NCBI GenBank assembly: GCA_030068145.1
Contig: JAPJBO010000571.1
Span: 62,001 to 126,000 of the forward strand
Origin: Diplonema papillatum
Taxonomy: Eukaryota; Euglenozoa; Diplonemea; Diplonemida; Diplonemidae
DNA length: 64,000 bases
Reading direction: 5' to 3'
The notes under the pieces are model-generated. The model was not told the origin of the DNA, did no database searches, and worked only from the letters and a program-made list of their open reading frames with translations. The translations under genes were made by a program, and so were the position numbers. The stretch's first letter is position 1. Every line of letters begins with the position of its first letter. This document shows positions 8,014 to 19,356 of this stretch, piece by piece.

Positions 8014-8023
8014 TGCTTAACGG

Positions 8024-8055
8024 TCATGTACTTAAAAGAACTCAATGCTTAACGG
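8024..8055 (+). repeat. 32-bp sequence at left junction of truncated family-1 copy
   Basis: A 32-bp sequence beginning TCATGTACTTAAAAG and ending AATGCTTAACGG. It occurs exactly at 8024-8055, 10339-10370 and 18401-18432, bracketing the two family-1 elements. The 10 bases before it (8014-8023, TGCTTAACGG) equal its own last 10 bases, as if a tandem 32-bp unit had been interrupted. It is either a target-site duplication or the element's terminal repeat. Confidence 0.85.
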
Positions 8056-10301
8056 TCTGTCAGGCTGCTCTTTCGCGCCGGTGTCGAAGGTGGCTATGAA
8101 ACGGCTGACGACGTCGGTGATGGGACTGATCTGGGGTGGATCCAACCCGAAGCGCGCGAGGGAGATGGTCCTTAACTTTCAGGAGAAGGGCCACCTGACG
8201 GATCCCGGAACATGCCTAGCATATAGGGTGACGACAGCGTTTTACGCGGCGTGCGAGAGGTTGCCACGACTGCTGCCTCTGATGAAGAGCATCCGGGGAA
8301 GATACGCCGAGGGGGACCTACCCCTGGGGCCAGTTGGACTGGCGATGAGGAGCATGGAGGAGTGTGGACACGTATGGGGACCCGGGCCCCTGTCTCGCAC
8401 GCTGAGGAATGGTGCAACATTTGACCCGTTAACCTCGGCACCTTCGAAGAGGGGACATGAAGTTAGGGCGGACTTGAGGGCGAAGACGTGGTCCCGACTG
8501 GTGGCGAGGCGGCCGGGATTTGAGGGCGTACAGAGAGCCGATCTGGAGCGGACGAACTCCTTCTGGAGGACCCGCGCACACCGCGAGGCTTTTACGTGTA
8601 GCGTTGGCGGGGGGTGAACACAGCTGAGTTCACGTCGCAGATGAGGCAGGCCGGAGCTGAGCCGCAGGCGCCCAGCTGCAAGCACTGTGGAAGCGGCGAC
8701 ACCGAGGACGAGAAACACGTATTCTGGGACTGCGGAGCGTACTCGCACATACGGCGACGAGAGGCACATGCCGAGCTGATGGCAGCCAACCGGGCCGACT
8801 GGCCCAGATGCACGCTGGAACACGGAGTGGTAGTACCCGAGAATGCCCAATTCTCGAGGCGGCTCCAGGAGATGATGGCTGAAATCCTTGCGGAACGGGC
8901 TGGGCTCGAAGCACGTGGCTGGGTGGGCAGGAACCCCACGACCCCCTGGTCGAGAGCGGATGCGATGCCTGCCGAGAAATTTGACCACCCCTTCGCGCGG
9001 ATTGCCCCGGCATGGACGTGGGAGCGGAACAAGACCTGGGGACTACCGACGTTTTATGCGTTGGTAGCGTGGCTGTCGGACATGCAATGGACCGAGAACG
9101 GGCAGGCGTCAATGCTGGAGCTTGCGATCGACTTTGAACTCTTCTCGGGCCTCAGCATGCCGCTGCACGGGAATGCGCCGAAGGGGGTGAGAGAACGGGG
9201 AAACGTCCTGCGCTGCATGATGAGCGCGTTGGACAAGCTGGCGGCACAGCAAGGGCTGGGAAGCTGCATGAGAGGAGAGAGGGTGTGCCCGACGACGTCG
9301 CTGTCGTTCATGGGCATCACGGGGATATCGGGTATACGGCCCAGGCCACGCTTTCGCGAGGCACACACGGGGACGATACTTGAGGAACAAGTGAAAGGAA
9401 GCGATGTAGGGACGCAGTGCCCGGCGTACCCTGACTGGACGATCGGGAGAGCGGCGAGGTGGGCCCTGCCTGCCCCACCACAACTGCACCCAGACCCCGT
9501 GCATATGCCGGGTGTCGGTATAGAGAAGGCACTCGTCACGTGCGCGACCCATCACAAAGGGAAGTGTGAGGCGTGCAGAGCACTCGTCCGAAGGGACGTT
9601 CCCACGGTAGAGATGTGCTGCCGGCACCATCACCACGCGAACGATGGGCAGCCGATCGCGGTGTGCACAGAGCACAGCACGACGAAGTGCGGCGAGTGCA
9701 AGACGGCGGCGGCGTGTTGCCGCAGCGGGCATCATGCCTGCCGCACGCATGGCAGAGGAACCTGCCAAGAGTGCAAAAGGCTCCCTACGCTGACGCAGAG
9801 GCGACCGGCGGCATGTTGCAGCCGCGGCCACCACCAGTCCAACAAGCCGAACGTCCAGTCAACCCCCGGACGCAACAAGAAGAAGAGCCCTCCTCACCCA
9901 CCCAGGTGGACGTACAACGGGAAACGCCAGTAGGAAAGCGAGCGGCGCGAGCGCCGCTCGCGGCAACGAAAAAGGAGACGGCGACGACCGGACGGGCGAC
10001 CAAGAGGCCGCCACCAACGCCAGGAACCAGCGAACGACCAGCGCTGAAGAAGAGGGTGCTCGGCACCCCGAAGGAAGGCCCGATCGCCGGCCGCAAGCGG
10101 AAGAAGAAGGTACCGAGGGCAAGCAGCTCTCAGAAACGACCGGGGACCACGGGCACACCAATGCCCTCGAAAGTGGAAAACGGGCACACGTGCCCGCCCT
10201 CGTACTCGCCGACTCAGTCTCAGGAATCGCAAGAAAGCCAAACCCCGCTAGCTCCACAAATGCTCGACCTTGACGACGCAGGTGACGACGTCATCCGATA
10301 A
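8056..10301 (+). pseudogene. Broken C-terminal part of family-1 ORF2
   Basis: The fragment corresponds to the thumb/C-terminal region, the CCHC knuckle (C-x2-C-x7-H-x4-C near 8680) and the three C-x2-H-x4-C-x2-C...CC...HH fingers (9541-9840). A deletion/rearrangement around 8575-8615 shifts the frame and produces a TGA. A 1-bp deletion near 9888, relative to the full copy, shifts the frame again and gives a stop near 9933. About 45 bp of basic-tail coding sequence is missing near 10110. It cannot encode a functional protein. Confidence 0.9.
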
Positions 10302-10338
10302 CCTGGCTATCGAGGCAGTGCATGCTAATCCACGTGGT
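8056..10338 (+). mobile_element. Family-1 non-LTR retrotransposon, 5'-truncated copy
   Basis: This segment aligns colinearly with 16060-18400 of the full-length copy downstream. It starts inside the region C-terminal to the reverse-transcriptase core and runs to the element 3' end (GCAGTGCATGCTAATCCACGTGGT). Strong 5' truncation is typical of target-primed reverse transcription. The 32-bp junction sequence lies on both sides. Up to about 8850 the copy differs frequently from the full-length element. After that it is nearly identical, so its history looks mosaic. Confidence 0.92.
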
Positions 10339-10370
10339 TCATGTACTTAAAAGAACTCAATGCTTAACGG
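10339..10370 (+). repeat. 32-bp sequence between the two family-1 elements
   Basis: Second exact copy of the 32-bp sequence starting TCATGTACTTAAAAG. It follows the 3' end of the truncated element directly and precedes the first base of the full-length element's 5' region. Confidence 0.85.
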
Positions 10371-10524
10371 ACCAACGATTTAAAAGCTACAGTTTCTGTA
10401 CTTTATTGGCTGCTCACGCGGCCGGTAAAGTGCGCCCGGAATTCATCCAGGACAAACACCCTCCATAACACAACAGCGGTACCCATCCGCGAAAAGAACG
10501 CGGGCTACCCGTAGCTCCGTCAAA

Positions 10525-12384
10525 ATGGACAGGATTAACGCCCTGATCCAGGAAGCGCGCGGGATGGCGGAACGCGCCAACCGCGACCAGCTGGATGCCG
10601 TTTTCGGCATCCTCGACGTCGCCACGACGCTGCTCCGGCGTCAGATCGAGGCGAACAGCGGGGAGCCGGCGCAACAACGGCCGCCACTGCAGCAACAGCA
10701 GCAACCGAAGCAGCAGCAGCAGCAACCGAGGCAGCAGCAGCAGCCGAAGCAGCAGCGGCAGCAACCGAAGCAGCAGCAACAACCGAAGCAGCAGCAACCG
10801 CAGCAACAACCGCAGCAACCGCAACAGCAACAGCAACAGCAACAGCAAACGCAGCAGCGCCGCCCGCAGGAGCAGCAACAACCGCAACCGCAACAGCAAC
10901 AGCAACAGCAAACGCAGCAGCGCCGCCCGCAGGAGCAGCAACAACCACAACAGCGGCCCCGGCAGGGGTACGCGCCCACCTGGGCAGAAGTGACCAGGCG
11001 GCCCCCGCCACCCGGTAAAATCGACGCCGCCGACTGGGACGCGCCGGTACTCCCCTCCCCCGACTTCGAAGCTGTCGAAGCTGGCCTCTGGGTCGCCCCG
11101 AGCGCCGCCGCAGCCGAAGAAGCGAAGGGTCCCGCAGCAGATGCGGTGGACGTCGCAGAGCGCGACGGGAAGCGGGTGCGCCTCGGCGTGCTGTGCCGGG
11201 AGGCCTTCGACGACGCACGCCGGGGCCCAGTGCTGCTGGAAGGCGGGCGGGTACAGGATATGTACCTGTGGGCGGGCGGCGGGCCGGTATGCCAGCGGGG
11301 CCAGGTGAAGGTCCAGAAGATGCCCGTCAGCGCGGTGAAGCCGAACGCCGCGACGACGGTACTGGCCTTCGTCGTGGCCAGGAAGCACGCCTCGCCGGAG
11401 ACCTGGGAGTGCGTCGAGAGGGACCCGCGCACGGCCCTGACTCGCCTGTGCCGGAGGGCTGTCAAGACGGCCCTGAAGACGGAGGTCCGCGTCCCCGACG
11501 ACGCCATGTGGGGCGTGTCGTCGCAGCAGGGGAGGCGCGAGCTGGTCGTGCGGGTGCCCCGCGCGCAGGCCGAAGCGATCCTGGCCAGCTCCGGCCGGGA
11601 CGGCGGATTCTGGCGGTCGACGGAGAAGGCCTGCCGGGACGCCATGCCGGTGGTCGCCCTGCAAAAGGGGGTCACGAGGGCGGTCGCGCTGGCGGTAGCT
11701 GAGCGGGCAGGCGCGGCGGCAGCCGGTCTCGTGCTCACGGGCAGCCGCCTCCTCGTGCGCGCACGCAGCGGCGCTGTGCTGGAGGAGGTGCGTGCGGCGG
11801 CCGCCGAACACGCTGCTGCCCCCCTCGAGTCGAAGCCGCGCTTCCTCGTGGTGGGTGCGACGCCGCGGGAGCACGAGGCGGACGTCGAGTACGTCCTGCG
11901 GGAGGCCGGCTGGCAGGTCGACGTCGCCACGTCGTTCCTGCGAAGTGGGGCCCGGGTTTGCGTGGTGACGTCGGCGGCCGACCCTCCCTTCAGGGTGCTG
12001 CAGCGGGAGGGGGCACCCGACCTCCGGGTAAACCCGTACGACGGAGGTGAGCTGCCGAGGGAGCGGCGCAGGCGGCTCGCTGCCGCCCCCAGCGGGAAGC
12101 GGCGGATGGACGAGCTACCGCAGCCGGCGGCCCCGCCAGCGGACGCGGCCGGACAGAAGAAGAGGAAGACGCCGGAGCCGGCAGCGGACGAGCCGGAACC
12201 CGCTGGGGACGATGTCCCAATGGACGGTGCAGAGGCGGGCGGGCACGTCCACGCCTTCGGGAGCCCGGCGAAGGCCACCGCCGGTTTCTCCTGCGCCCTA
12301 TGCGGGAAGAAGAAGGCGAAGGGCCAGATCCGCACGACATGCGAGGGCTGCAACGTCGGCGCGTGCAAGGCGTGTGCGGGTTGA
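10525..12384 (+). CDS. Family-1 ORF1 protein
   Basis: 619 residues from ATG 10525 to TGA 12382-12384. The N-terminal 50 residues are predicted helical. A Q/P/K-rich tract (roughly residues 50-145) follows, then a globular part of about 350 residues that I do not recognise as a known RNA-binding fold. The tail is lysine-rich. The C-terminal 45 residues hold a cysteine-rich zinc-binding-like motif of CxxC pairs (CALC, CEGC, CKAC) that ends right at the stop codon. By position it should be the nucleic-acid-binding chaperone of the element's ribonucleoprotein. Because ORF2 continues in the same frame, readthrough would give an ORF1-AlkB fusion. Confidence 0.85.
   Translation: MDRINALIQEARGMAERANRDQLDAVFGILDVATTLLRRQIEANSGEPAQQRPPLQQQQQPKQQQQQPRQQQQPKQQRQQPKQQQQPKQQQPQQQPQQPQQQQQQQQQTQQRRPQEQQQPQPQQQQQQQTQQRRPQEQQQPQQRPRQGYAPTWAEVTRRPPPPGKIDAADWDAPVLPSPDFEAVEAGLWVAPSAAAAEEAKGPAADAVDVAERDGKRVRLGVLCREAFDDARRGPVLLEGGRVQDMYLWAGGGPVCQRGQVKVQKMPVSAVKPNAATTVLAFVVARKHASPETWECVERDPRTALTRLCRRAVKTALKTEVRVPDDAMWGVSSQQGRRELVVRVPRAQAEAILASSGRDGGFWRSTEKACRDAMPVVALQKGVTRAVALAVAERAGAAAAGLVLTGSRLLVRARSGAVLEEVRAAAAEHAAAPLESKPRFLVVGATPREHEADVEYVLREAGWQVDVATSFLRSGARVCVVTSAADPPFRVLQREGAPDLRVNPYDGGELPRERRRRLAAAPSGKRRMDELPQPAAPPADAAGQKKRKTPEPAADEPEPAGDDVPMDGAEAGGHVHAFGSPAKATAGFSCALCGKKKAKGQIRTTCEGCNVGACKACAG
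10686..10955 (+). repeat. CAG/CAA-rich tract in ORF1
   Basis: Irregular CAG, CAA, CCG and AAG codons encode runs of Q mixed with P, K and R. Mixed codons suggest the Q-rich segment is kept as protein rather than being a pure slipping microsatellite. A block encoding QQTQQRRPQEQQQPQ is duplicated at about 10840-10945. Confidence 0.85.
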
Positions 12385-12387
12385 CTG
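12382..12387 (+). other. In-frame UGA-CUG between ORF1 and ORF2
   Basis: ORF1 stops at TGA 12382-12384. The same frame is then open without interruption to 18363. The next codon is CTG, so the context is UGA-C, a +4 base known to weaken termination in several viral and cellular readthrough genes. No in-frame ATG lies between this stop and the AlkB active-site HxD; the first in-frame methionine is distal to it. Readthrough, or non-AUG initiation, is therefore inferred for the AlkB domain. Confidence 0.7.
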
Positions 12388-15300
12388 CCACCGCGACCCG
12401 TCCCCGGCGCCAGTTGTGGCCCCGCCAGGCCGGTGCAGGCCGCCCAGCGCGTGAGTCCCAGCACGCAGTTCGACGATGGAGCAGGCGAAGGTGGTGGCGA
12501 TCCCTCTTCTTCTTCTTCTTCTTTTTGCCCCCCTCTCTCCCACAATGCGCCAGGCCTCATTAGCCCGGGAAATTTACCCGCAGCGCACAAACAATCCCCC
12601 CACAAAGGCCAGCGTGCCTGCGGGGGGGGCCCTGTCAGGGTGGAGGGAGCAATCCCCGGACTAAGCTTCCAGACGATCCCTCGGGATCTTCTGGACAGAC
12701 TGAGCCGAGTACCCGAGCTTGGGCCGAAAGCCACTTGGAGGAGGCTGGGGGGAGAACAAAGCAGAGAGACCCAGCAGTGGGGACACGCCTACCGACAGGG
12801 CGGACCCCCGGTCAGACTGGAACGGGGTATCCCCGAGGGGCCCCTGAAAGAAGCGGCGGATCTCATACGTGACCGTCTCGGGTGGGAACCGGACCAGTTG
12901 CTGGCCAACTGGTACCGGAGGGGAGTGGGGATCAACCCCCACAAAGACCAGAGAGAACTGGGTCCGAGGGTAGCGACCATATCGCTCTTGAGCGACACGG
13001 TCATGGAGTGGGAGAGGGGGAGCCGGAGAGTGAGAACCCCCCTGCCGGTCGGCACACTGTGCCACATGGAAGGCGAGGCCAGGAGCCTGTGGACACACGG
13101 GATTCGTCCCGATGATGTCGCACGCGACCGGGTCTCGCTCACCTACAGGGCCGTGCGCGAGGCCGCCTCCCAACGTTTGCAAGGCCGGGACACCCCGCAA
13201 GAAACTCCCCCCATGCCCCCCCCGCCCCGCCCTCAGGCGTCCTCCCCACCCCCCCAGCAACAGTTCAGCCCCGCGCCACGTACTGACTTGTGTAATCGCC
13301 AAAGAACTCTTATATCTATTAAGGAAACTACTAGACAGCAGCTGTTAAGCGCTGGAGACATCGAACAGAACCCGGGCCCCGGCCGCACGGAGATGAAGTT
13401 CGCGACGTTGAACGTAACTAGCTTACTTCAATATCTCCCAGCGGCCGACGCGGTGGAAGCGGATCTTCTCTGCTGCCAGGAGGTGACACTCCTTCCGTGC
13501 AAACGGGCGCAGGCGGAGGAATACCTGCGGAAATGGTGCTGCCACTGGGGCCTGCCGCCTCCCGGAAGACTCTGTAGAAACTCCGGTAGTCGCTCGACGG
13601 TGAACGCCGCGAACGGAGGGCTCTCCACTCTAGTACTGAGACCGATACCTGCGTACGATACGATGACGGCGCTCTCGCACGCAGCAATACGGTCCCCGGA
13701 CCGAGTGAGCCATACGGTAGTAGCAACAGGGGCCGGCAACACGTTCGTGCACGTGTTCAATGTCTACTGCCCTTCCGGAAACGGGAGGGCGGAGAGCGAG
13801 GAGCGTGAGGACATGCTGGAGAAGATCCTCTTCGCAGCGGCAGATAGCCTCGGTGACGTCCCCATAATGGTGATGGGTGACCTGAACACGGAAGAAGACC
13901 GGTCCCCTGTGCTGCGGAAGGCACTAAGGAACGGATGGTCCGACGCAGCGGAACTGCACCATGCGCGTACCGGTGACACACCGCCACCACCGACCTTTAC
14001 CAGCGCCCGGACGACAGGCACGAGGATCGACCGCATACTCCTCAACCGAATAACGACGGGAGCTTTCCGTCAATGCGTCACCACCGCGGTGAACGTACCG
14101 GGACACCGGCTCGTGACAATGACCCTGGACATTGCGGCGCTGCGCCAAATCGTGTGGCGATTTAAAGTACCGCGGGAAATCCCTACCGAGGGGGGACCCA
14201 AGTGGGGCCTCTCGGACACAGAAGCTAACAGGGAAGCCGTACAGAGACTGACCAACTCCGATTTCGCAGAACGGCTGGCAGCACAGCGAGTGGAAGAGGC
14301 CTGGCTCGAGTGGTCACGAGTCAGTGAGCAGTACTTGCAGGATGCCTTCGGAATCCCTGCGGAAGAAAGGGGAAGGAGTACCGGCCGGGGGATAAAGACG
14401 TCGCCTAAGAGAGTCTGTATCACGGCAAGCACTGCGAGCGACGGGTCGGGGGCGGCGAACAGCAGACAGCTACGGCTCCGGAAGGCCATCCACAGGATGG
14501 AACGCATCTGCAGCTACCTTGCGCAGCGACGCGGGCCGGAGGCAGTTCCGCATGAAGTATCCCGTTGCTGGCAGAACAGCAGACGGCTGGCACAGGCGTG
14601 CATGAAAGGTGGCCAAGGGACAGAAGGATTCCCGGATCATGAGGAGGCGAAGCAGCTTCTCACGGCATTGCGGGAAGAGACGAGTAGGCTCGGAAGGGAA
14701 GGATCGGCGGCCAGGTTTACGAAGTACCGAGACAAGCTGAACGAGAGGGCCGATGCGAGCAGACGATGTCTGACAACCATCTGCGCCGGACGCGCTGAGC
14801 CGTCGGGGGTGTTGCGAACGGGGGCGGGAGTGACTGCAAATGTTGACGAGATGGACGAGGCGCTGAACACTGCGTGGGACCCTATCCTGCGTAAGTACAA
14901 GGACGGGCCAGAGCCGGAGTACGAGCCGTTTCGGGATCGGTTCCAGGATCACATCGGCCCACACTTGATGGAAGCCGGAACAATCACGGGGGAGGAGCTG
15001 CGAATTCTGCTGAGGAAGAAGCCGAAGAAAAGCGCGTCAGGGGTGGATGGCTGGCGCATGGCTGAACTGCGGGAGTTGCCGCTCCCCCTGCTGAATGCAC
15101 TTGCAGACGTCATGAACCTGGTCGAAGCGACTGGGGACTGGCCGGCAAGCATGACAACTGCGCTGGTGTCGATGGTGCCGAAAGATGAGAGCCAAGACCC
15201 GCTGCACACGAGGCCGATAACCGTCACATCCGCCGTGTACCGCTTGTGGGCCTGCCGCAGGCTTGCGGACATTGTCCTGTGGCAGGAGGGGTGGATCGAA

Positions 15301-18300
15301 GAAGGACAGAAAGGCTTTCGGCCGGGCCACCGGATCGAGGACGTCTTGATGGAGATAGGGCTCGAGGTGGAGGACGCCTTGCTGGACGGAGAGCCGCTCT
15401 ACGGAGTGGCGCTGGACTTCCGGAAGTGTTTCGACATGGTCCCGCGAGAGGTAGTGCTACGCTTGGCTGAGGACTTAGGACTGCACGGTCGGGTTCTCAA
15501 GCCGCTGAGGGCGATTTACAGTCTGCTCGCGAGACGCTTCAAGTTGCCGCTAGGGGTGGGCAGGGAGTTTAGTGTGACCAACGGTATCCTTCAAGGGTGC
15601 CCTGTGTCCGTCATACTCATCAATGCCCTGCTGTCGGTAGTGATGAAAGCGGTCAAGAAAGAAGCTGAGGGTGTGAGTCCTAAGTCGTACGCGGATGATG
15701 CCACACTACTGTCCAGGCTGTCGGAGGCCGCACTGCAAAAGGGAGTCGACATTGTTGACGAGTTCTGCACACTCACCGGAATGCAGCTAAACCTCGAGAA
15801 GACCATCGCATTCTCGACGAGGCAGAGGCACCAGTCGACGCTCAGACTCCGAAGCGGAAATGCGCTGCTGCGATTTAGCAAGTCCGTCACGTGTCTGGGG
15901 GCCCTAGTCTCAACGGCGAAGAACAGAAAGGAGAGGTCCGACTCTAAGAGGGTAGAGAGGGCGGCGGCCCTAGCGGAAGGCCTCCGCCACGCGCCATTCC
16001 GGTACGAAAAGCGGGTCCGTATTGTGCAGTCGAATGTGTTGCCGGCAGCGCTATCAGGCTGCTCCTTCGCGCCGGTGTCAAAGGTGGCGATGAAGCGGTT
16101 GACGACGTCGGTGATGGGTCTGATCTGGGGTGGAGCAAACCCGAAGCGCGCGAGAGAAATGGTCCTGAACTTCCAGGAGAAGGGCCACCTGACGGACCCC
16201 GGTACGTGTTTAGCGTACCGGGTGACGACGGCGTTCTACGCGGCGTGCGAGAGGCTGCCGCGACTGCTACCTCTGATGGAGAGTATCCGGGGGCGGTACG
16301 CCGAGGGGGACCAACCCCTCGGCCCAGTCGGGCTGGCGATGAGGAGCATGGAGGAGTGTGGACACATATGGGAACCTGGGCCCCTATCTCGCACGCTACG
16401 ACGGAATGGTGCAGTGTTCGACCCGCTGGCCTCGTCGCCCTCGAAGAGGGGGCACGAAGTGAGGGCGGACCTGAGAACGAGGACGTGGGCCCGACTGATG
16501 GCGAGAAGGCCAGGATATCAGGGGCTGGAAAGAGCCGACTTGGAGCGCACGAATGCGTTCTGGAAGACGAGGGAATGTTCCGCGCACACGGCGAAGCTAA
16601 TTCGAGTCGCGATTGCGGGGGGTGTGAACACGGCGGAGTTCACGTCGCGGATGAGGCAGGCCGGAGCTGAGCCGCAGGCGCCCAGCTGCAAGCACTGTGG
16701 GAGCGGCGTGACGGAGAACGAACAGCATATCTACTGGGACTGCGACGCATACTCACACATTCGCCGGCGGGAAGCACACGCCGGGCTGATGGCGGCCAAC
16801 CGAACCGAGTGGCCCCGATGCACGCTGGAACATGGTGTGGTTGTACCGGAGAACGCCCACTTATCGAGGCGGCTCCAGGAGATGATGGCTGAAATCCTTG
16901 CGGAACGGGCAGGGCTCGAAGCACGTGGCTGGGTAGCCAGGAACCCCACGACCCCCTGGTCGAGAGCGGATGCGATGCCTGCCGAGAAATTTGACCACCC
17001 CTTTGCGCGGATTGCCCCGGCATGGACGTGGGAGCGAAACAAGACCTGGGGACTACCGACGTTTTATGCGTTGGTAGCGTGGCTGTCGGACATGCAGTGG
17101 ACCGAGAGCGGGCAGGCGTCAATGCTAGAGCTTGCGATCGACTTTGAACTCTTCTCGGGCCTCAGCATGCCGCTGCACGGGAATGCGCCGAAGGGGGTGA
17201 GAGAACGGGGAAACGTCCTGCGCTGCATGATGAGCGCGTTGGACAAGCTGGCGGCACAGCAAGGGCTGGGAAGCTGCATGAGAGGGGAGAGGGTGTGCCC
17301 GACGACGTCGCTGTCGTTCATGGGCATCTCGGGGATATCGGGTGTACGGCCCAGGCCACGCTTTCGCGAGGCACACACGGGGACGATACTTGAGGAACAA
17401 GTGAAAGGAAGCGATGTAGGGACGCAGTGCCCGGCGTACCCTGACTGGACGATCGGGAGAGCGGCGAGGTGGGCCCTGCCTGCCCCACCACAACTGCACC
17501 CAGACCCCGTGCATATGCCGGGTGTCGATATAGAGAAGGCACTCGTCACGTGCGCGACCCATCACAAAGGGAAGTGTGAGGCGTGCAGAGCACTCGTCCG
17601 AAGGGACGTGCCCACGGTAGAGATGTGCTGCCGGCACCATCACCACGCGAACGATGGGCAGCCGATCGCGGTGTGCACAGAGCACAGCACGACGAAGTGC
17701 GGCGAGTGCAAGACGGCGGCGGCGTGTTGCCGCAGCGGGCATCATGCCTGCCGCACGCATGGCAGAGGAACCTGCCAAGAGTGCAAAAGGCTCCCTACGC
17801 TGACGCAGAGGCGACCGGCGGCATGTTGCAGCCGCGGCCACCACCAGTCCAACAAGCCGAACGTCCAGTCAACCCCCGGACGCAACAAGAAGAAGAGGCC
17901 CTCCTCACCCACCCAGGTGGGCGTACAACGGGAAACGCCAGTAGGAAAGCGAGCGGCGCGAGCGCCGCTCGCGGCAACGAAAAAGGAGACGGCGACGACC
18001 GGACGGGCGACCAAGAGGCCGCCACCAACGCCAGGAACCAGCGAACGACCAGCGCTGAAGAAGAGGGTGCTCGGCACCCCGAAGGAAGGCCCGATCGCCG
18101 GCCGCAAGCGGAAGAAGACGAAGGCGACCACACCCGACTCAGGGGTGCATCGAAGGAAGAAGAAGGTACCGAGGGCAAGCAGCTCTCAGAAACGACCGGG
18201 GACCACGGGCACACCAATGCCCTCGAAAGTGAAAAACGGACACACGTGCCCGCCCTCGTACTCGCCGACTCAGTCTCTGGAATCGCAAGAAAGCCAAACC

Positions 18301-18363
18301 CCGCTAGCTCCACAAATGCTCGACCTTGACGACGCAATGGCAGGTGACGACGTCATCCGATAA
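12385..18363 (+). CDS. Family-1 ORF2: AlkB-like dioxygenase / 2A / AP-endonuclease / reverse transcriptase
   Basis: Open for 1,992 residues after the UGA. Domains in order: (1) AlkB-like 2-oxoglutarate/Fe(II) dioxygenase at about 12650-13155, with NWYRRG, metal-binding H (12940) and D (12946), distal H (13096) in WTHGI, and RVSLTYR (13129-13149) matching the family Rx5R. (2) Proline-rich linker. (3) 2A peptide ending NPG/P at 13377/13378. (4) AP-like endonuclease from 13393, with N in TLNVTS, QE, GDLN (13876), RIDRI and a GHRLV histidine. (5) Reverse transcriptase, including LDFRKCFD, NGILQGCP and YADD (15688-15699). (6) CCHC knuckle near 16685. (7) Three CxxH-CxxC-CC-HH fingers at 17551-17850. 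(8) Basic S/T/P-rich tail. RNase H is absent. AlkB enzymes remove alkyl groups from nucleic acids. A role in protecting element RNA or cDNA is inference. Confidence 0.9.
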   Translation: MPPRPVPGASCGPARPVQAAQRVSPSTQFDDGAGEGGGDPSSSSSSFCPPLSHNAPGLISPGNLPAAHKQSPHKGQRACGGGPVRVEGAIPGLSFQTIPRDLLDRLSRVPELGPKATWRRLGGEQSRETQQWGHAYRQGGPPVRLERGIPEGPLKEAADLIRDRLGWEPDQLLANWYRRGVGINPHKDQRELGPRVATISLLSDTVMEWERGSRRVRTPLPVGTLCHMEGEARSLWTHGIRPDDVARDRVSLTYRAVREAASQRLQGRDTPQETPPMPPPPRPQASSPPPQQQFSPAPRTDLCNRQRTLISIKETTRQQLLSAGDIEQNPGPGRTEMKFATLNVTSLLQYLPAADAVEADLLCCQEVTLLPCKRAQAEEYLRKWCCHWGLPPPGRLCRNSGSRSTVNAANGGLSTLVLRPIPAYDTMTALSHAAIRSPDRVSHTVVATGAGNTFVHVFNVYCPSGNGRAESEEREDMLEKILFAAADSLGDVPIMVMGDLNTEEDRSPVLRKALRNGWSDAAELHHARTGDTPPPPTFTSARTTGTRIDRILLNRITTGAFRQCVTTAVNVPGHRLVTMTLDIAALRQIVWRFKVPREIPTEGGPKWGLSDTEANREAVQRLTNSDFAERLAAQRVEEAWLEWSRVSEQYLQDAFGIPAEERGRSTGRGIKTSPKRVCITASTASDGSGAANSRQLRLRKAIHRMERICSYLAQRRGPEAVPHEVSRCWQNSRRLAQACMKGGQGTEGFPDHEEAKQLLTALREETSRLGREGSAARFTKYRDKLNERADASRRCLTTICAGRAEPSGVLRTGAGVTANVDEMDEALNTAWDPILRKYKDGPEPEYEPFRDRFQDHIGPHLMEAGTITGEELRILLRKKPKKSASGVDGWRMAELRELPLPLLNALADVMNLVEATGDWPASMTTALVSMVPKDESQDPLHTRPITVTSAVYRLWACRRLADIVLWQEGWIEEGQKGFRPGHRIEDVLMEIGLEVEDALLDGEPLYGVALDFRKCFDMVPREVVLRLAEDLGLHGRVLKPLRAIYSLLARRFKLPLGVGREFSVTNGILQGCPVSVILINALLSVVMKAVKKEAEGVSPKSYADDATLLSRLSEAALQKGVDIVDEFCTLTGMQLNLEKTIAFSTRQRHQSTLRLRSGNALLRFSKSVTCLGALVSTAKNRKERSDSKRVERAAALAEGLRHAPFRYEKRVRIVQSNVLPAALSGCSFAPVSKVAMKRLTTSVMGLIWGGANPKRAREMVLNFQEKGHLTDPGTCLAYRVTTAFYAACERLPRLLPLMESIRGRYAEGDQPLGPVGLAMRSMEECGHIWEPGPLSRTLRRNGAVFDPLASSPSKRGHEVRADLRTRTWARLMARRPGYQGLERADLERTNAFWKTRECSAHTAKLIRVAIAGGVNTAEFTSRMRQAGAEPQAPSCKHCGSGVTENEQHIYWDCDAYSHIRRREAHAGLMAANRTEWPRCTLEHGVVVPENAHLSRRLQEMMAEILAERAGLEARGWVARNPTTPWSRADAMPAEKFDHPFARIAPAWTWERNKTWGLPTFYALVAWLSDMQWTESGQASMLELAIDFELFSGLSMPLHGNAPKGVRERGNVLRCMMSALDKLAAQQGLGSCMRGERVCPTTSLSFMGISGISGVRPRPRFREAHTGTILEEQVKGSDVGTQCPAYPDWTIGRAARWALPAPPQLHPDPVHMPGVDIEKALVTCATHHKGKCEACRALVRRDVPTVEMCCRHHHHANDGQPIAVCTEHSTTKCGECKTAAACCRSGHHACRTHGRGTCQECKRLPTLTQRRPAACCSRGHHQSNKPNVQSTPGRNKKKRPSSPTQVGVQRETPVGKRAARAPLAATKKETATTGRATKRPPPTPGTSERPALKKRVLGTPKEGPIAGRKRKKTKATTPDSGVHRRKKKVPRASSSQKRPGTTGTPMPSKVKNGHTCPPSYSPTQSLESQESQTPLAPQMLDLDDAMAGDDVIR
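13342..13380 (+). other. 2A ribosome-skipping peptide
   Basis: Codons read LLSAGDIEQNPGP, matching the canonical D-(V/I)-E-x-N-P-G-P consensus with the usual upstream leucine-rich context. The skip would fall between codons 13375-13377 (G) and 13378-13380 (P). It would release the AlkB-containing product from the endonuclease/RT product, which would begin with proline 15 nucleotides before the first codons of the endonuclease domain. 2A-like sequences at this place are known in trypanosome and some animal non-LTR elements. Confidence 0.93.
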
Positions 18364-18400
18364 CCTGACTTTCAAGGCAGTGCATGCTAATCCATGTGGT

Positions 18401-18432
18401 TCATGTACTTAAAAGAACTCAATGCTTAACGG
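18401..18432 (+). repeat. 32-bp sequence at right junction of full-length family-1 copy
   Basis: Third exact copy of the 32-bp sequence, directly after the element 3' region (CCATGTGGT) and before unrelated DNA. Confidence 0.85.
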
Positions 18433-19356
18433 CTTGTCACGTGGGCGGCCCTGAGATTACCCCCTCAGGTGACACCACTTTATCTTTAGCCATACTTCAA
18501 CCTTCTTGCAGCGAAGTGTCAGCTTCGTACTGTTACGAACAAGCGGAATCGAGTCGTATTAATTAAGCACCCTTGCAGAGCCGAAGCTGGTGAATACCGC
18601 CAATGCCGGAAGTGCGCCAAAGCATGCCACGGATTGAAGCAAGGGTGACTTTTCCACATGCTCGAGAGACACGGACGGAGTGCGTAAATTGTTGTCAGCG
18701 AGGCCAAGACCGATTGTCTCCTCCGCTGTCTGCAGACACTCAGGTTCCGTGCTGATGGTCCGCCTTTTGTATCCGTGAGTTGAAGAGGCATCTTCTGCTC
18801 AACCACAAAAACTACGACTTCCCCCCCTCGACCTTTGCAGTGACGAAAAGGGGTTAAAAACACCAACCCAAACAATCTTCGCCAGTAGAGAAGAACCTGC
18901 CTAAATAAACTCCGTTCGGGCGGGTCAGTCTGACGCCGTCGGGGAAACAGAAAAAAGAAAAGAAAAAGAAGAAGGCCGCCCTTACTGAGGACGGATGTCA
19001 TCAGCAAGGACGCAGCAATCGTCGCAGAGGTGGGTGAAGTTAGGGTCCGTCCACTTTGATATGGGTACTTCCAAGCACTTCCGGAAGGAGATGCGTCATC
19101 AAAGGATGCATTGTTGGCTTCTCTGATCTCGATGCGTTGACAGCGCACTCTTGCAGACTTGGCAGTGCTGGGCACAGTCCCGGTGGTGACGGGGAAACAG
19201 AAAATAAAAGGAAACTGCAGGCCATCGCAGCCTGTTGTAAGCAAATTAATACCTGACAAACAACCCAGTGAACGCTGTCACAGGCAACTGACTGAGCGAA
19301 TATCGCCCGATCCACAAAAAAGGGGGGGAGGGCAAGTCCCAAGGCTGTTTGCCGGC
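18433..19356. other. Unassigned DNA upstream of the decarboxylase gene
   Basis: No coding region is recognised. About 65 bp around 18723-18785 (CTGTCTGCAGACACTCAGG...) recurs at 41955-42018. This stretch should contain the promoter and perhaps a 5' exon of the decarboxylase gene, but no element can be pinned down. Confidence 0.5.

What the first reader, a model, noticed from the sequence alone, without database searches (positions are those of the whole stretch)
12650..13155. AlkB-like dioxygenase domain built into a non-LTR retrotransposon
Seen: upstream of the endonuclease, the ORF2 frame carries NWYRRG, HKD (12940-12948), WTHGI (His 13096) and RVSLTYR (13129-13149), in the order and spacing of AlkB family 2-oxoglutarate/Fe(II) dioxygenases. 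Known: AlkB enzymes repair alkylated RNA/DNA, and plant RNA viruses carry such domains. Inference: the element may demethylate its own RNA or cDNA template, or counter a host modification defence. I do not know of a characterised retrotransposon with this layout, but novelty was not checked.
Basis: partly seen in the sequence, partly recalled or inferred. Interest (0 to 1): 0.92.

Follow-up and report, generated by a model that had tools for sequence, protein, structure and literature searches.

The report
AlkB enzyme cassette in diplonemid LINEs
A jumping gene in a marine protist carries a built-in enzyme of a family that strips methyl groups from RNA and DNA, and the same enzyme cassette has spread into quite different kinds of jumping genes in that genome, which suggests a shared tool against chemical damage or host control.

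The parts
10371..18432 (+). Full-length LINE (non-LTR retrotransposon) copy carrying AlkB; the 3' limit is uncertain, as the match to copy L054 runs on to 18512
   Evidence: Shared 3' tail ending GCTTAACGG on both sides; ORF1, ORF2 with EN and RT
10525..12384 (+). ORF1 (619 aa, Gln-rich N-terminal part, Cys-rich C-terminus); only a sub-threshold Pfam match (Presenilin, 16.5 bits) on the low-complexity part
12382..12384 (+). TGA stop of ORF1, followed by CTG, in the same frame as ORF2; TGA-CTG or TGA-CTA in 5 of 5 (sub)families looked at (window, L073, L074, L075, L077; not all independent)
12385..12639 (+). Linker between the ORF1 stop and AlkB; open frame without ATG; holds a polypyrimidine tract (about 12502-12541); omega 0.58-0.71
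12640..13167 (+). AlkB-type 2OG/Fe(II) dioxygenase domain
12643..13162 (+). Cassette shared at DNA level (82%, 520 bp) with the R2-like OTU/RT element L071:1459-1969
   Evidence: blastn
12940..12948 (+). HKD: Fe(II)-binding HxD
13096..13098 (+). Distal Fe(II)-binding His (WTHGI)
13129..13149 (+). RVSLTYR: 2-oxoglutarate-binding Arg pair
13327..13380 (+). 2A (StopGo) motif TTRQQLLSAGDIEQNPG|P between AlkB and endonuclease
   Evidence: sequence; DVEQNPGP in L073, L074 and L054; motif recalled, function untested
13408..14049 (+). APE-type endonuclease (PF03372, residues 326-539 of the frame)
15202..15816 (+). Reverse transcriptase core (PF00078, residues 924-1128); best solved relative LINE-1 ORF2p
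18424..18432 (+). GCTTAACGG near the 3' end; same 9-mer at 8015, 8047 and 10362 lies at the other LINE junctions of the window
8057..10370 (+). Older 5'-truncated LINE copy, 91% identical, lying head to tail upstream of the full copy

Best explanation
The stretch encodes a working AlkB-family 2OG/Fe(II) dioxygenase that is a genuine, selected part of an active or recently active LINE of Diplonema papillatum, and one member of a cassette lineage that has moved between unrelated mobile elements (APE LINE, R2-like OTU/RT element, Helitron). Shown by computation: domain, catalytic residues, predicted fold, purifying selection, sharing of the cassette between element classes, and an OTU-like domain in the same slot of a related LINE. 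Inferred: AlkB is made from the ORF2 frame, probably as an ORF1-AlkB product by readthrough of (or reinitiation after) a UGA-CUR stop, and is parted from endonuclease-RT by 2A; it then removes methyl groups from nucleic acid that all these elements have, their own mRNA or single-stranded intermediates, so undoing host RNA methylation (an m6A writer-like gene and YTH readers are present) or methyl lesions that block copying.
Confidence: 0.68

Rival explanations
1. Template repair: AlkB removes m1A/m3C-type alkyl lesions from element RNA or nascent single-stranded DNA so that RT (or Helitron rolling-circle copying) is not blocked; no host defence is involved. (This and the next four divide the open question of substrate and role within, or against, the best explanation.)
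For: AlkB family repairs such lesions (recalled; the orchid paper cites an RNA-repair idea for plant viruses); would serve LINE, R2-like element and Helitron alike because all have single-stranded intermediates (elements; intermediates recalled).
Against: The slot can hold an OTU-like domain instead, which looks like a host-facing toolkit rather than copying chemistry; such lesions should matter for every LINE, yet L077 shows no AlkB there.
Confidence: 0.27
2. Epitranscriptomic counter-defence: AlkB erases m6A placed by the host on element mRNA, escaping YTH-reader-linked decay or silencing.
For: Host has one MT-A70 match (36.8 bits) and seven YTH matches on four contigs (best 4.4e-30); VIA-align ranks the m6A eraser ALKBH5 first; an orchid Gypsy AlkB demethylates m6A in vitro (PMC9289625); the alternative slot content is an OTU-like domain.
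Against: By sequence nearest to ALKBH8, not ALKBH5; Z differences are small; the host MT-A70 match is partial (positions 8-106) and its target is unknown.
Confidence: 0.38
3. DNA-directed: AlkB acts on modified DNA bases (6mA or others) at element loci to relieve silencing.
For: NMAD-1, named a DNA 6mA demethylase in the PDB, is second by VIA Z; Helitrons are DNA elements; the genome paper infers 5mC and base J pathways (PMC10161547).
Against: AlkB enzymes are not known to me as efficient 5mC or base J removers (recalled); no 6mA data for this host seen.
Confidence: 0.17
4. AlkB is a passenger: a captured host fragment kept open by GC-rich composition and recent spread, without function.
For: Copies of one subfamily are nearly identical, so open frames alone prove little.
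Against: Between subfamilies and in Helitrons synonymous changes exceed nonsynonymous ones per site (Fisher p 1e-11 window-L074, 2e-10 window-L054, 3e-18 L051-L052), about as in the endonuclease, while adjacent linkers are lax; the catalytic residues are invariant in the seven-row element alignment.
Confidence: 0.04
5. Regulatory role on host RNA or tRNA (ALKBH8-like wobble-uridine hydroxylation or similar) that favours translation of element mRNA.
For: ALKBH8 is the best sequence relative in three searches.
Confidence: 0.12

Closest known systems
Orchid (Phalaenopsis) Ty3/Gypsy elements with an ALKBH5-like ORF2 (PMC9289625; passages read)
   Same: A retrotransposon carrying an AlkB 2OG/Fe(II) domain with intact HxD..H and Arg residues, kept as an accessory enzyme
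   Different: LTR element with Gag-Pol; AlkB is a separate ORF and ALKBH5-like; here an APE LINE, AlkB within the ORF2 frame before a 2A, nearest ALKBH8 by sequence, and shared with an R2-like element and Helitrons
AlkB domains of plant RNA viruses (Alphaflexi-, Betaflexi-, Closteroviridae; named in PMC9289625)
   Same: Mobile genome with an RNA stage and an embedded AlkB domain
2A-bearing non-LTR retrotransposons such as trypanosome L1Tc and CR1-like elements (recalled; 2A papers seen only as listing)
   Same: 2A motif in an APE-type LINE
   Different: No AlkB domain that I know of before the 2A
Dualen/RandI LINEs and Helentrons with OTU proteases (Dualen recalled; Helentron passages read in PMC4067079)
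   Same: Mobile elements with an OTU-like cysteine protease
   Different: Here OTU-like domain and AlkB are alternatives in one slot of related LINEs, or occur together in the giant R2-like element L071
Cellular ALKBH8 / ALKBH6 / ALKBH5
   Same: AlkB domain, catalytic residues, fold
   Different: Encoded by mobile elements; no RRM or methyltransferase; element AlkBs form their own clade

Membership tests
AlkB-type 2OG/Fe(II) dioxygenases (PF13532) | Profile match over the curated cut-off | tested here: met
   49.9 bits vs 31.2, E 6e-13
AlkB-type 2OG/Fe(II) dioxygenases (PF13532) | HxD...H iron triad and C-terminal Arg pair for 2OG | tested here: met
   Invariant in the 7-row element alignment; intact in 60 of 63 fetched element loci with an AlkB match
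AlkB-type 2OG/Fe(II) dioxygenases (PF13532) | Double-stranded beta-helix AlkB fold | tested here: met
AlkB-type 2OG/Fe(II) dioxygenases (PF13532) | Oxidative demethylation or hydroxylation of nucleic acid | not testable with these tools
   needs biochemistry
ALKBH8 subfamily | RRM before and methyltransferase after the AlkB domain (recalled) | tested here: not met
   Only AlkB, EN and RT found in the ORF2 product at E <= 0.1
ALKBH5 m6A erasers | Nearest solved relatives by sequence are ALKBH5 | tested here: not met
   ALKBH8 E 2e-18, ALKBH5 about 2e-5 with the element profile
APE-type non-LTR retrotransposon (LINE) | APE endonuclease and RT in one ORF2 product | tested here: met
   PF03372 and PF00078; RT nearest LINE-1 ORF2p, E 1.4e-19
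APE-type non-LTR retrotransposon (LINE) | No LTRs; 5'-truncated copies; common 3' end | tested here: met
   Self-comparison of 10000-18800 with the window (matches over 150 bp shown) gives only the truncated upstream copy and an internal Gln-type repeat; the 3' tail occurs 3759 times in the genome, control 0
2A / StopGo | D(V/I)ExNPGP motif (recalled) | tested here: met
   GDIEQNPGP at 13354-13380; DVEQNPGP in L073, L074, L054; DVGQNPGP in the OTU-bearing L075
2A / StopGo | Cotranslational separation in vivo | not testable with these tools
   needs reporter or peptide data
Orchid AlkB Ty3/Gypsy elements | Gag-Pol LTR element with ALKBH5-like separate ORF | tested here: not met
   LINE-type EN and RT, AlkB in frame with them

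The most novel reading that the evidence does not exclude
D. papillatum mobile elements share a horizontally exchanged accessory toolkit: one AlkB cassette lineage, interchangeable in LINEs with an OTU-like domain, moves between APE LINEs, R2-like retroelements and Helitrons. It would let RNA- and DNA-based elements alike erase host methyl marks (or methyl damage) on their nucleic acids: an anti-silencing module passed between transposon classes inside one genome.
Probability: 0.4. Interest if true: 0.92.

Novelty: new variant of a known kind. Interest (0 to 1): 0.78.

Why it matters
It points to RNA or DNA methylation (or methyl damage) as something that transposons of a marine protist evolve tools against, and it shows one enzyme cassette passing between element classes with different replication chemistry. 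Because related LINEs carry AlkB or an OTU-like domain in the same slot, the role of each module can be compared directly. It also bears on the genome paper's inference, from a dozen AlkB-type genes, that the host uses dynamic demethylation (PMC10161547, passage): many AlkB copies in this genome belong to mobile elements. Whether those dozen include any was not checked, as supplements could not be read.

Tried and rejected
Passenger or chance ORF: rejected on selection and residue conservation. Separate acquisitions of AlkB by each element type: disfavoured by the single clade, though the stem is long, only 5 host-type AlkB loci were put into that tree (others fetched, such as L031-L034, L037 and L040, were left out) and no cellular donor was found. 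AlkB kin outside D. papillatum in long proteins: the protein search with the LINE region gave 3 hits, all D. papillatum; with the Helitron N-terminal region none; a scan of viral contigs gave 47 pattern matches, none confirmed. These searches need shared short words, so distant cases may be missed. NCBIfam gave only sub-threshold AlkB hits. L053-type loci carry AlkB but I could not name the element. A neat rule 'every LINE copy starts right after GCTTAACGG' did not hold on checking: it fits the window and L073, but in L054 the copy starts some 26 bp further on and L076 has only GCTTAAC.

Ten text searches listed no AlkB LINE or AlkB Helitron. Five lists were capped: 30 of 96, 15 of 31 (69), 15 of 927 (84), 15 of 19 (85), 10 of 48 (89). 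The library lacks most subscription journals and preprints; Repbase was not searched. Papers: PMC9289625, PMC10161547, PMC4067079 and PMC6875170 were seen as passages, the last without use; all others only as search listings. Dualen, L1Tc, the ALKBH8 layout, substrate chemistry of AlkB enzymes and the 2A consensus are recalled.

Full report

Host. [quoted passage not shown] in the passages I saw it does not connect the two.

The element. The LINE lies at about 10371-18432 (3' limit uncertain; the match to L054 runs to 18512): ORF1, a TGA, then ORF2 with linker, AlkB, spacer, 2A motif (DIEQNPGP), APE endonuclease, RT and a Cys/His-rich tail by eye. Its RT matches LINE-1 ORF2p best (E 1.4e-19). 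In the genome 124 of 763 candidates were scored and 124 match, mainly in classes of about 100, 81 and 73% identity, 123 of 124 without a stop in the match (best candidates only).

Selection. Between the window copy and subfamily L074 the AlkB core has omega 0.144 and the whole domain 0.179 (Fisher p 1e-11); the endonuclease has 0.155; the linker 0.61 and the spacer 0.42. Against L054, AlkB has 0.146, endonuclease 0.150, RT 0.080 and spacer 0.47. Against L073 AlkB has 0.22 and the endonuclease 0.11, with few changes. Less favourable: LINE against L071 gives 0.27-0.30, and L074 against L054 gives 0.40 on 9 changes. Fe- and 2OG-binding residues are invariant in the seven element AlkBs aligned. 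These are few pairs, not independent of each other, by a simple counting method (NG86).

A cassette in unlike elements. A Pfam scan of the genome (150 of 250 candidates scored) shows AlkB in frames other than the LINE's. Helitron: L051 and L052 carry AlkB near the N-terminus of the frame that encodes Helitron_like_N (8.5e-38 and 6e-38), in L052 also PIF1 (4.5e-42). R2-like element: L071 carries AlkB, OTU (E 8e-4, below cut-off) and RVT_1 (2.4e-21) in one frame reported at about 4080 codons; its RT is nearest R2; L072, which continues the frame, has a UCH match (3.8e-8). In one search (150 of 330 candidates scored) 23 matches are of this type or close to it (82% identity or more). In a tree of 90 AlkBs (9 from elements, 5 from host-type loci, 76 from the database) the element AlkBs form one clade (100/99); the LINE ones group together (97/97), with L071 as their neighbour on weak support (88/49). 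Between window 10000-18800 and L071 the DNA matches only over 12643-13162 (82%), apart from simple Gln-type repeats, and L072 not at all, while the RT regions align at 20% identity, E 0.013. In Helitrons too, Rep is 98% identical between L051 and L052 (dS 0.08) but AlkB only 67% (dS 1.29), so their N-terminal part has probably been exchanged.

A slot. In L075 the stretch between the ORF1 stop and the 2A is an OTU-like domain (20.1 bits, just below the 23.3 cut-off; E 1e-3) instead of AlkB; the last 215 bp of that locus, from just upstream of the 2A into the endonuclease, are 98.6% identical to the AlkB LINE L073, and the endonuclease there is 98% identical to the window's. The OTU-like domain belongs to another large LINE group (150 of 1061 candidates scored), of which L077 has an endonuclease (9.8e-14) and an OTU-like stretch (17.3 bits, below cut-off) but no AlkB and no NPGP in the part read. 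So related LINEs differ in the domain carried at this place.

Expression. ORF1 and ORF2 share a frame, parted by TGA-CTG or TGA-CTA in 5 of 5 (sub)families (L075 and L077 are related to each other, as are the other three) and by TGA-CTG in 28 of 30 copies of the window's subfamily; the other 2 have another sequence there. The window copy and L073 have no in-frame ATG between that stop and the AlkB HxD; L074 has one 32 codons after the stop, before AlkB; L075 and L077 have one within 6 codons. Readthrough would give an ORF1-AlkB product, with the 2A then freeing endonuclease-RT; reinitiation, non-AUG start or a trans-spliced start remain possible. This is inference.

Mechanism. The elements that share this AlkB have in common an mRNA and single-stranded intermediates, not reverse transcription. 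The host has one MT-A70 match and seven YTH matches on four contigs, so m6A is possible. An orchid Gypsy AlkB removes m6A from RNA in vitro (PMC9289625, passages). I judge erasing of methyl marks or lesions on element RNA or single strands most likely, with m6A counter-defence somewhat ahead of lesion repair. The rivals listed divide this substrate question.

Novelty. AlkB in a retrotransposon is known from the orchid elements, which by that paper are ALKBH5-like and so probably a separate case. The rows listed showed no AlkB LINE, no AlkB Helitron and no cassette exchange of this kind; several lists were capped.

Searches were made to recheck stop contexts, start codons, junctions and L077.

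Noticed in passing
8015-8023, 8047-8055, 10362-10370, 18424-18432: The 9-mer GCTTAACGG (4 found, 0.39 expected) lies at each LINE junction in the window, where LINE copies stand head to tail, as if the LINE prefers this site or its own 3' ends. L073 fits too; in L054 the copy starts some 26 bp further on, and L076 has only GCTTAAC.
   Followed up: partly
18433-18512: Flank CTTGTCACGTGGG after the 3' tail resembles the flank of copy L054 (CTTATCACGTGGG), so the LINE may end later than 18432 or both copies sit in one repeated target.
   Followed up: partly
G000 whole genome: The LINE 3' tail GTACTTAAAAGAACTCAATGCTTAAC (up to 2 mismatches) occurs 3759 times, control 0.
   Followed up: no
L071:784-7998 with L072: R2-like element with AlkB, OTU (below cut-off), RT, a CCHC/restriction-like region (by eye) and a UCH-type deubiquitinase match in one very long open frame.
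   Followed up: partly
L075:868-1458; L077: Large LINE group with an OTU-like domain in ORF2; L075 looks like a recombinant of this 5' half with the AlkB LINE's 2A-endonuclease part.
   Followed up: partly
L076:387-1499: A separate OTU match over the cut-off (28.2 bits) upstream of a 5'-truncated LINE copy.
   Followed up: no
L034: Host-type AlkB gene whose frame begins with a ubiquitin-like stretch by eye.
   Followed up: no
L046, L047, L053, L065-L067: A further AlkB-bearing repeat, about 47% identical to the LINE AlkB, in an element I could not classify.
   Followed up: partly
P0002 (DIPPA_14024): Annotated host protein model that ends in a piece 97% identical to the LINE AlkB: exonised LINE or faulty gene model.
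   Followed up: no
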